Shown here: piece after piece, positions 58,462 to 61,952 of the stretch
Numbering within the stretch: position 1 is the stretch's first letter
Layout of the letters: every line of letters starts with the position of its first letter
Source of the DNA: Iocasia fonsfrigidae
GTDB taxonomy: Bacteria > Bacillota > Halanaerobiia > Halanaerobiales > DTU029
Reading direction: 5' to 3'
NCBI RefSeq assembly: GCF_017751145.1
Contig: NZ_CP046640.1
Coordinates: 2,522,137-2,586,136 of the forward strand
DNA length: 64,000 nucleotides
Position numbers and translations under genes: made by a program
Notes under the pieces: model-generated
The model's input: the letters and a program-made list of their open reading frames with translations, nothing else
The model's database searches: none
Told to the model about the DNA's origin: nothing

Positions 58462-58533
58462 TTATGGAGTTGCATTATTTAAAAAGTAAACTAATGCCCA
58501 AACCACAACAACTGCCCCGATTAATTCAAGCAT
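58462..58533 (-). CDS. Small hydrophobic peptide (23 aa) after the purine permease
   Basis: ATG 58533 follows GGGGGGGGAG, a very strong site. The product MLELIGAVVVVWALVYFLNN plus ATP is one hydrophobic helix with a short polar tail. It lies between the permease and the terminator. Small single-helix partners are known for other transporters (for example MetS-like subunits); whether this is one is unknown. Confidence 0.55.
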   Translation of the reverse strand: MLELIGAVVVVWALVYFLNNATP

Positions 58534-58685: not shown

Positions 58686-60011
58686 TTAAAGCCAGATAAA
58701 ATAGGCCAAAAAGACAATACCTAAAACATATACTAACCAGTGGACCTCTTTACCCTTACCAGTAAATAATTTAATAAGTGGATAAGTAATAAAACCAAAG
58801 GCAATACCATCTGATATTGAATAAGCCAGAGGCATAATTAGCATAGTCATAAAAGCAGGTAATACCTCAGTAAAATCATCCCAATCAATCTTAGTAATAT
58901 TTGAAATCATCATTGTTCCTACAATTATCAGGGCAGGTGCTGTTGCAGCCCCAGGAATCATCTTAACCAGCGGGAGAAAAAACAATGATAAAAAGAATAA
59001 AATAGAAACAACTACACCTGTTAAACCGGTACGACCACCATCAGCTACACCAGAAGCAGATTCAACATATGTTGTAACAGTACTTGTCCCAAATAATGCG
59101 CCACCTGTGGTGCCAATAGCATCAGCAAGTAGGGCCTTACTTGCTTTTGGTAAATTACCCTCATCATCCAGATAACCAGCCTGCTGACTAACACCAATAA
59201 GAGTACCGGCAGTATCAAACATATCTACAAATAAGAAAGTTAGTAAAATACCAATAAAACTAATATTAAAGGCCCCAGCAATATCTAACTGCCCAAAAAT
59301 TTCTGCCCAATCACTAACACTTGGCAGTTCAAAAATACCTGCCGCTCCAACATCCACAACACCTTCAATCAAACCACGTGCAGTCAAAATCCAGGCAATA
59401 ACAGTAGTTAAAATAATTCCTATAAAAATAGAACCCTTAACACCCCTGGCCATCAATATACCAGTAATTACCAATCCTATAACTGCCACTAAAGCAGCAC
59501 CCGATAAAAGATTTGGTGTCAAGGCAATTAAAGTAGCCTCATCACTAATAATAATTCCAGCACCCTGTAAACCTATAAAAGCAATAAACAATCCTATCCC
59601 TGCACTTATACCTGATTTCAATCCCATGGGAATAGAATTTACAATCATCTCTCTTACAGGAAGTATACTCAAGATAATAAATAATATACCTTCAATAAAG
59701 ATTAGGCCCAGAGCAATTTGCCAGCTAACTCCAAGTGCCCCACAAACATAAAAAGCAAAAAAAGCATTTAAACCCATACCAGATGCCAGTGCAAAAGGAT
59801 AATTTGTTAAAAAAGCCATTGCTAATGTACCAAGAATTATACCGGCTATCGTAGCAATAAACACACCATTAAAAGGCATTCCAGCAGCAGATAAAATGTT
59901 AGGATTTACTATAATTATGTAAGCCATTGTCATAAATGTTGTAAATCCGGCCACAACCTCTGTCTTCACATCAGTACCATTTTCCTTCAGCTTAAAAAGA
60001 TTTTCCAGCAT
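58686..60011 (-). CDS. NCS2-family purine permease, AzgA/PbuG-like (441 aa)
   Basis: Guanine/hypoxanthine uptake protein with about 12 hydrophobic segments. Motifs are GFTTFMTMAYIIIVNPNIL, SGMGLNAFFAF, GLFIAFIGLQGAG, LFVDMFDTAGTLIGVS and TSTVTTYVESASGV. ATG 60011 follows GGGGG at a good distance; a longer frame to 60104 would run through the terminator hairpin and is not real. Expression is controlled by a tandem guanine/ykkC-class leader. Confidence 0.93.
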   Translation of the reverse strand: MLENLFKLKENGTDVKTEVVAGFTTFMTMAYIIIVNPNILSAAGMPFNGVFIATIAGIILGTLAMAFLTNYPFALASGMGLNAFFAFYVCGALGVSWQIALGLIFIEGILFIILSILPVREMIVNSIPMGLKSGISAGIGLFIAFIGLQGAGIIISDEATLIALTPNLLSGAALVAVIGLVITGILMARGVKGSIFIGIILTTVIAWILTARGLIEGVVDVGAAGIFELPSVSDWAEIFGQLDIAGAFNISFIGILLTFLFVDMFDTAGTLIGVSQQAGYLDDEGNLPKASKALLADAIGTTGGALFGTSTVTTYVESASGVADGGRTGLTGVVVSILFFLSLFFLPLVKMIPGAATAPALIIVGTMMISNITKIDWDDFTEVLPAFMTMLIMPLAYSISDGIAFGFITYPLIKLFTGKGKEVHWLVYVLGIVFLAYFIWL

Positions 60012-60072: not shown

Positions 60073-60136
60073 AAAAAAGCCTGGTGGGTAGCTTCCCTGT
60101 ACATAGTTGCACGAAGGAACCTACCCGCCCAGGCTT
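60073..60136 (-). terminator. Riboswitch terminator upstream of the purine permease
   Basis: AAAGCCTGG...GGGTAG pairs with CTACCC...CCAGGCTTT, followed on the minus strand by T. Its 5' side is also the conserved 3' end of the ykkC-type aptamer, so the two structures exclude each other. Confidence 0.88.
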
Positions 60137-60232
60137 TTATCCATACGGTGTAATCCCACAGTCAACTGTGGAACCTGCACCCCTCGGACCAGTCCCCTGT
60201 AAGAATTTCATAGAGCGGAACCCTAGGTGCAC
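60122..60232 (-). ncRNA. ykkC-class aptamer, probably PRPP riboswitch
   Basis: The minus strand carries the ykkC signatures in order: CTAGGGTTCCG, then ACTGGTCCGAGGGG, and GGATAAAAGCCTGGGCGGG at the 3' end. Subtype 1 senses guanidine and subtype 2 members sense ppGpp or PRPP. Placement after a guanine aptamer and before a purine permease points to PRPP, following the published tandem guanine-PRPP class. PRPP binding would hold the 5' side of the terminator and favour expression. Confidence 0.82.
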
Positions 60233-60234
60233 TC

Positions 60235-60307
60235 CCCCCGTAGTTCGGATAGTTTACGGCTTTCCGGTAGAGACTTGTGAACCATATTTTCACAGTTATA
60301 CGAGGTC
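60235..60307 (-). ncRNA. Guanine riboswitch aptamer
   Basis: Minus strand: CGTATAAC, P2 GTGAA/TTCAC with loop AATATGG, junction AAGTCTCTACC, P3 CGGA/TCCG with loop containing CCGTAAA, and the last junction AACTACG. The C in ACTACG is at the ligand-pairing position (C74 type), which specifies guanine rather than adenine. One junction base (C in AAGTCT) differs from the usual U. Confidence 0.88.
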
Positions 60308-60327
60308 ATTTAATTTTTCTTAATATA

Positions 60328-60356
60328 ATTATACGAAATTGCCCTCAACTTGTCAA
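60328..60356 (-). promoter_or_regulatory. Sigma-A promoter of the purine permease leader
   Basis: TTGACA (60356-60351), 17 bases, TATAAT (60333-60328); exact consensus, 20 bases before the guanine aptamer. Confidence 0.9.
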
Positions 60357-60372: not shown

Positions 60373-61053
60373 CTAAATTACAATCTCACCGGCAAACTCC
60401 ATCTGAGTAAGGTCTGTCCGAATATAAATCTTTTCAATTCCAATTGGTATCTTATTTAATAAAACTGTTCTTTCACTTAGCAGTACATTACCATTATCCT
60501 GGAAAAAACGCTTTATAATTTCTTTAGGACTCTCTACAGTAATAATGTTATTCATGAATTGAAGGTGATTTATACCCTTTCTTCCCAACAAATCATAGAT
60601 TGATTCCAGATTTTCAATCCTCTCTTGATTAAGCTCTTTTTCCATAAAGGTTATCAGTTCATGTACACAATAGGGGTTATCATCTACATACTGAACCTGA
60701 TATATCTTTACCAGTTCATCACCTTGTCCAATCCTTTCAATACTGGGATAGTCATTTTCATCAGCCTCTTCGATCTCAATATTACCAGTATTCAGATTAT
60801 TATAACTATATTCCTCCCTGAGACTTACTTTCGCCTGTAATTCACTGTGTTCATCATTTTTTAACCTCTGTTCCATATTACGGGCATATTTCTCCCGTAA
60901 TTTCATCAATGAAATATTGGCTTCTGATAAAATAGTCCTTACATACCGCGGAGTAGTCTGTACACATTCTGCAATATCACTAATCTTTAAAAATGGATCA
61001 CTCTGAGCAAAATTAATAATCTGCTCTTTTTTGGTTAATTCATCAACTGCCAC
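60373..61053 (-). CDS. Helix-turn-helix protein A (226 aa)
   Basis: N-terminal helix-turn-helix: DPFLKISDIAECVQTTPRYV then RTILSEANISLMKLREKYAR, with no recognised sensor domain after it. The C-terminal half has a pattern of alternating strands (VLLNKIPIGIEKIYIRTDL) that may be a small UTRA-like ligand domain. It is 40-45% similar by eye to the next gene over the helix-turn-helix only. GTG start after GAGGGGGG. Family unknown. Confidence 0.65.
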   Translation of the reverse strand: MAVDELTKKEQIINFAQSDPFLKISDIAECVQTTPRYVRTILSEANISLMKLREKYARNMEQRLKNDEHSELQAKVSLREEYSYNNLNTGNIEIEEADENDYPSIERIGQGDELVKIYQVQYVDDNPYCVHELITFMEKELNQERIENLESIYDLLGRKGINHLQFMNNIITVESPKEIIKRFFQDNGNVLLSERTVLLNKIPIGIEKIYIRTDLTQMEFAGEIVI

Positions 61054-61160: not shown

Positions 61161-61874
61161 TTAAACTGCCATCTCTTTTTTCTTTAAAATAAGGCCCCTA
61201 TTAGGAGAAACATTCAAACTCACCTGCCTGGTATCAAAATAAGCCAACATCACTGCATAAACACTATCACTACTACCCAAGGTTTGTTTAACCCGGTAGA
61301 TAGGTACTAAAGGTGTAATATTAATACTGTCAGCTATCTGCCCATTAGCTATTTCAATATCAATTATCAGATCCGATATTTCAATCCCTGATTCCTTAAC
61401 TTCATAACATAATAAATCAACAAGGTCATTAAAACTATGCAAAATCTCCCCATCTATTATTTTATCCTTTTTTATAAACAAAGTACATACAGACCAGGGA
61501 GTATCTTTAATAATATGTAAAAAGGAATAATAGCTATAGTCCTCTTTTATATTGACTCCCAGTTCAGATAAATCAGCACTATTGTTTAGATACAGCTTAT
61601 CAGTCAATATTGATTTAACATTATTTTGATAAGGAAAACGGGTTAAATGATAGAAGAACAACTTATCTTTTACCGCAATATTCATATTTTCCACTTTCCT
61701 GGCATAATCTTTTCTAAGTTTCATCAAGGAAATATCAGATTCTGATAAAATCGTCCGCACATAACGAGATGTTGTTTTAGCCATTTTAGCCAGGTCTTCT
61801 ATTTTAAGAAACGGGTCTTTATGCGCATTCTCCACAATAATTTCTTTTTTCGTTTTCCACTGATAATTACTCAT
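61161..61874 (-). CDS. Helix-turn-helix protein B (237 aa)
   Basis: Paralogue of protein A, with KDPFLKIEDLAKMAKTTSRY then VRTILSESDISLMKLRKDYA. The C-terminal part differs but again ends in short strands (YRVKQTLGSSDSVYAVMLAYF). ATG 61874 follows GGGGATGAG. The two are likely regulators; neighbours are an oligopeptide transporter upstream and the purine permease downstream. Targets unknown. Confidence 0.65.
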   Translation of the reverse strand: MSNYQWKTKKEIIVENAHKDPFLKIEDLAKMAKTTSRYVRTILSESDISLMKLRKDYARKVENMNIAVKDKLFFYHLTRFPYQNNVKSILTDKLYLNNSADLSELGVNIKEDYSYYSFLHIIKDTPWSVCTLFIKKDKIIDGEILHSFNDLVDLLCYEVKESGIEISDLIIDIEIANGQIADSINITPLVPIYRVKQTLGSSDSVYAVMLAYFDTRQVSLNVSPNRGLILKKKEMAV

Positions 61875-61952
61875 CAACTCATCCCCTATTAATTATTTTA
61901 TAAAAGGACAAAAAAGTTAGAGTCCCTTCTTACTCTAATACTAACTACTATA

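What the first reader, a model, noticed from the sequence alone, without database searches (positions are those of the whole stretch)
60073..60356. Tandem guanine + ykkC-class (probably PRPP) riboswitch with one shared terminator
An exact consensus promoter is followed by a guanine aptamer, a ykkC-type aptamer and a single terminator whose 5' arm lies inside the second aptamer. This matches the reported tandem guanine-PRPP logic gate, here before a purine permease with a 23-residue companion rather than biosynthesis genes.
Basis: partly seen in the sequence, partly recalled or inferred. Interest (0 to 1): 0.6.

Follow-up and report, generated by a model that had tools for sequence, protein, structure and literature searches.

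The report
Two-sensor RNA switch before purine permease
An RNA switch that reads guanine and, most likely, the nucleotide precursor PRPP sits before a purine-uptake gene; the device is a known kind, but it controls purine import as well as purine synthesis, and this copy has two odd bases in its ligand pockets.

Summary
On the minus strand an exact TTGACA-17-TATAAT promoter (60356-60328) is followed by a guanine-type purine aptamer (Rfam 74.6 bits), a ykkC-class aptamer (63.2 bits in Rfam, 92.5 bits in a model built here from 20 tandem elements) and one terminator. The terminator's 5' arm is the 3' strand of the second aptamer. The second aptamer has the PRPP marks: helix P0, G96, C75-A76-C77-C78 and G104-G105. 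So the guanine-PRPP reading is supported by sequence; no binding was tested. Two pocket deviations separate this copy from its orthologs: G instead of C/U at position 49, and an extra A beside the guanine-pairing C74.

The permease context is not rare. Of about 95 tandem loci found by a context-blind scan of GTDB genomes, 25 precede the same AzgA/PbuG-type permease, about 41 precede xpt-pbuX, and about 21 precede de novo purine genes. The founding paper says the tandem system serves only de novo genes. This genome has three tandem copies: before purD, before this permease, and before a nucleoside ABC transporter, where the PRPP pocket is eroded. The 23-residue "companion" is a real conserved microprotein, but it is not specific to the permease.

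The parts
60328..60356 (-). sigma-70 promoter, TTGACA-17-TATAAT
   Evidence: 12 of 12 consensus; TTGAC and TATAAT conserved in all ten aligned relatives
60236..60306 (-). guanine-type purine aptamer core (Rfam match 60323-60221); P1 = 60305-60299 with 60242-60236
   Evidence: RF00167 74.6 bits; coordinates
60243..60246 (-). J3/1 reads G-A-A-C: one extra A beside the guanine-pairing C74 (60243)
   Evidence: a base in that column occurs in 1 of 92 other tandem guanine aptamers, plus own third copy L003
60115..60239 (-). ykkC subtype 2b-like (PRPP) aptamer with P0, P1, P2, P3
   Evidence: R1 92.5 bits; RF00442 63.2 bits; covariation in P0-P3
60233..60242 (-). 5' strand of extended P0; 60242-60236 is also the 3' strand of guanine P1
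   Evidence: 10-bp duplex with 60119-60110, -11.4 kcal/mol
60110..60119 (-). 3' strand of extended P0, also part of the terminator 5' arm
60182..60182 (-). position 49 (T. mathranii numbering) = G; C or U in nearly all other tandem elements
60129..60129 (-). position 96 = G, the PRPP-versus-ppGpp determinant
   Evidence: PMC6031431
60073..60138 (-). intrinsic terminator; 5' arm overlaps P3 and P0 3' strands; U6 at 60078-60073
   Evidence: same overlap in 136 of 138 elements tested with a loose tail rule
58686..60011 (-). NCS2 purine permease, AzgA/PbuG (adenine/guanine permease) type, 441 aa
   Evidence: PF00860 154.6 bits; plant AZG1 structure sequences E 1.6e-72
58462..58533 (-). 23-aa single-TM microprotein ORF MLELIGAVVVVWALVYFLNNATP
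   Evidence: E below 0.003 in 26 of 38 genomes of the order, no Pfam or NCBIfam match

Best explanation
This is a tandem guanine-PRPP transcription attenuator that gates a purine-base permease. After the promoter the RNA first folds the guanine aptamer. Guanine (OFF ligand) locks its P1 helix, which holds the strand (60242-60236) that would otherwise build P0 of the second aptamer. P0/P3 then fail, and their 3' strands are free to form the terminator, so the permease is not made. PRPP (ON ligand) stabilises P3 and P0, which ties up the terminator's 5' arm and displaces guanine P1, so RNA polymerase reads into the permease gene even when guanine is present. The effect would be to import bases only when guanine is scarce or when PRPP, the co-substrate that turns imported bases into nucleotides, is plentiful. 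Shown here: the sequence elements, the mutually exclusive pairings and the conservation. Inferred: ligands, ON/OFF directions and physiology, from PMC5912903 and PMC6031431.
For: Both aptamers and the promoter match well above chance. The PRPP pocket is met at A5, G6, G48, C75-C78, G96, G104 and G105. P0, P1, P2 and P3 show compensatory changes across 20 elements. Among 54 columns at least 95% conserved in 40 order-level elements the window departs at one, an A-U to G-U change in P0. Guanine P1 (60305-60299/60242-60236) and the 10-bp extended P0 (60242-60233/60119-60110, -11.4 kcal/mol) share the whole P1 3' strand; family orthologs make the same 8-10 bp helix at -9.7 to -13.3 kcal/mol. The terminator uses the 3' strands of P3 and P0. 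Orthologous tandems precede the same permease in 5 of 8 genomes of the family; a sixth breaks off at a contig end.
Against: Position 49 is G. In T. mathranii C49 uses its O2 to hold the metal at the 5'-phosphate of PRPP (PMC6031431), so affinity may be lowered or changed. J3/1 of the guanine aptamer has an extra A. Beyond the four inner P0 pairs, strict in-register complementarity across all tandems is not significantly better than with swapped partners (725 of 5000 permutations reach it). No binding or termination data exist for this RNA.
Confidence: 0.74

Rival explanations
1. Guanine-only OFF switch: the second aptamer no longer binds PRPP well because of G49 and serves only as a passive antiterminator scaffold.
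For: G49 is at a metal/phosphate contact; it is the only purine at 49 among 43 order-level elements. The third copy in this genome shows that PRPP contacts can be lost while the terminator is kept.
Against: All other pocket bases and the P0-P3 pairs are kept, with only one departure at 54 strongly conserved columns. A purL-linked tandem, L081, also has G49 and scores 109 bits.
Confidence: 0.14
2. The second aptamer has changed ligand (ppGpp, ADP or another phosphorylated nucleotide) through G49.
For: ykkC aptamers switch ligand by single pocket changes (PMC6031431: G96A moves preference from PRPP to ppGpp about 40,000-fold).
Against: G96, which pairs with C75 and excludes the guanine of ppGpp, is intact. 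The tandem with a guanine aptamer is described for the PRPP subtype. Orthologs in the same position have U49 and nearly complete PRPP pockets.
Confidence: 0.07
3. Guanidine-I riboswitch, as the Rfam label RF00442 suggests.
For: RF00442 at 63.2 bits, 0.2 above its cut-off.
Against: Guanidine-I needs A at 49 and lacks P0; here 49 is G and P0 is present. Two true guanidine-I loci in the set (L044, L095) have A49, no guanine aptamer, and score only 42 bits with R1. The gene is a purine permease.
Confidence: 0.02
4. The extra A in J3/1 makes the first aptamer insensitive to guanine or selective for another purine (xanthine, 2'-deoxyguanosine).
For: Joining-region changes underlie known purine variants (PMC9295807); the insertion lies beside C74.
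Against: The known variants change J2-3 (for example U51G in xanthine-II); here J2-3 keeps the guanine form. The BMP-linked copies of G005 and of this genome also have a base at that place, though in this genome's copy it may only lengthen P3.
Confidence: 0.1

Closest known systems
Tandem guanine-PRPP riboswitch (Sherlock et al. 2018, PMC5912903), Boolean IMPLY gate
   Same: Aptamer order, close spacing, one shared terminator overlapping the second aptamer, PRPP pocket marks, P1/P0 competition.
   Different: Controls a purine permease rather than de novo purine genes; G at position 49; extra A in guanine J3/1.
PRPP aptamer of Thermoanaerobacter mathranii (PMC6031431, 6CK5), ykkC subtype 2b
   Same: P0, C75-A76-C77-C78, G96, G104-G105, A5-G6.
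   Different: G49 instead of C49; G101 instead of A101 (a position reported as more than 75% purine).
Guanine riboswitches before purine permeases and xpt-pbuX (general knowledge; RF00167)
   Same: Guanine OFF control of purine uptake and salvage genes.
   Different: No expression platform of its own: the terminator belongs to the second aptamer.

Membership tests
ykkC subtype 2b (PRPP) | P0 helix formed by conserved 5' and 3' tails | tested here: met
   P0 pairs with compensatory changes in 20 elements; window pairs GC, GC, GU, AU
ykkC subtype 2b (PRPP) | G at position 96 (more than 97% in PRPP; A, C, U or absent in ppGpp) | tested here: met
   60129 = G; G in 42 of 43 order-level elements; A in the non-tandem L066
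ykkC subtype 2b (PRPP) | pyrimidine at position 49 (A in guanidine-I) | tested here: not met
   60182 = G; the only purine among 43 order-level elements; L081 also has G
ykkC subtype 2b (PRPP) | phosphate and ribose contacts A5, G6, G48, C77, C78, G104, G105 | tested here: met
   all present
ykkC subtype 2b (PRPP) | binds PRPP selectively and promotes read-through | not testable with these tools
   needs in-line probing and termination assays
Tandem guanine-PRPP riboswitch | guanine aptamer directly upstream, with no terminator between | tested here: met
   the two aptamers abut at 60236; only one terminator
Tandem guanine-PRPP riboswitch | single terminator whose 5' arm overlaps the PRPP aptamer | tested here: met
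Tandem guanine-PRPP riboswitch | controls only de novo purine genes up to IMP (as stated in PMC5912903) | tested here: not met
   permease here; about 68 of about 95 tandem loci precede uptake or salvage genes. This is a published association, not a structural criterion
Guanine riboswitch (guanine-I) | three-stem junction, loop-loop sequences, J1/2 and J2/3 core, C74 | tested here: met
   RF00167 74.6 bits; C74 = 60243
Guanine riboswitch (guanine-I) | J3/1 of standard length | tested here: inconclusive
   one extra A; effect on binding unknown
Guanidine-I riboswitch | A at position 49 and no P0 | tested here: not met
   G49 and P0 present
ppGpp riboswitch (subtype 2a) | no G at position 96 | tested here: not met
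   G96 present

The most novel reading that the evidence does not exclude
Tandem guanine-PRPP gates are regulators of purine uptake and salvage as much as of de novo synthesis. In this genome three copies coordinate all three routes, and pocket changes (G49 here; A96 and loss of G104/G105 in the nucleoside-transporter copy) retune each gate's PRPP threshold or ligand for its own pathway.
Probability: 0.2. Interest if true: 0.6.

Novelty: new variant of a known kind. Interest (0 to 1): 0.42.

Why it matters
The published rationale for this RNA logic gate is that it serves only de novo genes up to IMP, so that it favours AMP during starvation. Finding the same gate mostly before base permeases and salvage genes calls for a simpler rationale: PRPP is the co-substrate for salvage, so import is opened when the cell can use the bases. 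It also shows that Rfam labels such elements guanidine-I or misses them.

Tried and rejected
A T. mathranii sequence recalled from memory was off register at the reported positions, so it was dropped. Numbering was instead anchored on the residues named in PMC6031431. Guanidine-I and ppGpp readings were rejected on positions 49 and 96 and on P0. The idea that the 23-aa ORF is a permease subunit was rejected, because most relatives lie beside other genes. Strict in-register covariation of the extended P0 across all tandems was tested and is not significant, although looser duplex energies are better for own partners than for swapped ones (0 of 5000 permutations, relatedness not controlled). Weak RF00442 and R1 hits elsewhere in the genome (598407; 2124416) look like chance.

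Full report
What is there. The finding is on the minus strand. Reading 5' to 3': an exact promoter (60356-60328), a purine aptamer (60323-60221, 74.6 bits), a ykkC-class aptamer (60237-60124, 63.2 bits against a cut-off of 63), one terminator (60138-60073, -41.6 kcal/mol with z -8.6 for the folded stretch), an SD and a 441-aa permease (60011-58686). The permease is PF00860 and its nearest solved relatives are the plant adenine/guanine permeases AZG1 and AZG2. Rfam has no separate PRPP family among its matches here, so the second aptamer is listed under Guanidine-I; of 20 loci scanned together, nearly all with tandems, only three elements reached that family's cut-off.

Which ligand. Numbering follows T. 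mathranii (PMC6031431) and was anchored on the residues that the paper names. The window has A5, G6, G48, C75-A76-C77-C78, G95-G96-G97, A103, G104 and G105. G96 separates PRPP from ppGpp aptamers. P0, absent from guanidine-I, is supported by compensatory changes. A model built from 20 tandem elements (R1, window included) gives the window 92.5 bits and gives two true guanidine-I loci (L044, L095) about 42 bits; those two have A49 and no guanine aptamer. The first aptamer keeps C74 and the J1/2 and J2/3 core of guanine riboswitches.

Two odd bases. Position 49 is G. It is C or U in all other true order-level elements and A in guanidine-I. Among the wider set only L081 (before purL, 109 bits) and the non-tandem L066 have G. 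C49 holds a metal at the 5'-phosphate of PRPP, so the change could matter. The guanine aptamer has an extra A in J3/1; a base in that column occurs in 1 of 92 others and in the third copy of this genome. Orthologs before the same permease have neither change. Because the pyrimidine at 49 was used in the literature as a sorting mark, strict membership in subtype 2b is not claimed; the element works like one and meets every other sequence mark tested.

How it works. Guanine P1 pairs 60305-60299 with 60242-60236. P0 of the second aptamer, extended to 10 bp in the window, pairs 60242-60233 with 60119-60110 (-11.4 kcal/mol), so the whole 3' strand of P1 is shared. Family orthologs make the same 8-10 bp helix. 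The terminator in turn uses the 3' strands of P3 and P0; 136 of 138 elements tested show the same overlap, with a loose rule for the U-rich tail. These exclusive helices fit the published model: guanine favours termination, PRPP favours read-through and overrides guanine (PMC5912903, PMC6031431). Across 100 tandems own P0 partners form stronger duplexes than swapped ones (0 of 5000 permutations), but relatedness was not controlled, and strict register pairing beyond the four inner pairs is not significant.

Gene context. A pattern scan of one genome per GTDB species, blind to context, gave 106 loci. About 95 of them have a guanine aptamer, counting by pattern plus inspection of the rest. Of these, 25 precede an AzgA/PbuG-type permease like the window's, about 41 precede xpt-pbuX, 2 precede a BMP-type nucleoside ABC transporter, and about 21 precede de novo purine genes. 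The genes were named by sequence motifs, not by profile searches. The sample is weighted toward Paenibacillus and its relatives, so proportions are rough. PMC5912903 states that the tandem system's genes are only those for de novo synthesis up to IMP (with codA named for the PRPP subtype), and the 2022 review repeats the IMP rationale (PMC9481103). Searches for PRPP riboswitch with permease or xpt found no paper in the held library. Supplementary alignments could not be read, so earlier authors may have held such loci unreported.

In this genome. All three purine aptamers are in tandem with a ykkC aptamer: before purD (L008), before this permease, and before a 409-aa protein plus BMP/ABC nucleoside transporter (L009). 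In the third, R1 falls to 47.5 bits and PRPP contacts are lost (A96, A104, A105) while the terminator pairing persists. Across the order, 33 of 38 genomes carry the second aptamer; purD is the commonest context, and the permease context is concentrated in the window's own family.

Verdict. Observation confirmed, main reading supported by sequence, no biochemistry. The device is of a known kind; what is notable is its wide use for purine uptake and salvage and the two unusual pocket bases in this copy.

Noticed in passing
window 58533-58462 (minus): 23-aa single-TM microprotein with a W-xx-YFLNN-(M)AP tail; relatives at E below 0.003 in 26 of 38 genomes of the order, no Pfam or NCBIfam match. 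It follows the permease in only a few genomes and often precedes an ABC-2 membrane protein or lies beside unrelated genes.
   Followed up: partly
L009:5043-5246 (minus; third tandem copy in the same genome): Guanine aptamer intact, but the ykkC aptamer has A96, A104 and A105; the terminator complement is kept. It precedes a 409-aa protein without Pfam match and a BMP/ABC nucleoside transporter.
   Followed up: partly
L011, L028, L039, L040, L047, L106 and others (Paenibacillus-type xpt-pbuX leaders): A sub-group of tandem elements before xpt-pbuX has A or C instead of G at the position of G105 while keeping G96; possibly a different PRPP affinity, or an alignment-register effect.
   Followed up: no
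window 60373-61053 and 61161-61877 (minus): Two adjacent proteins with similar N-terminal ends directly upstream of the switch; one has a sub-threshold UTRA match (19 bits), so they may be regulators.
   Followed up: no
window 60073-60036 (minus): An 8-bp inverted repeat ATCTGGGT/ACCCAGAT between the terminator and the permease SD; it was not evident in most relatives.
   Followed up: no
L042, L052, L056, L082, L089, L093: Two ykkC/PRPP-type elements 1.0-2.4 kb apart in one locus.
   Followed up: no
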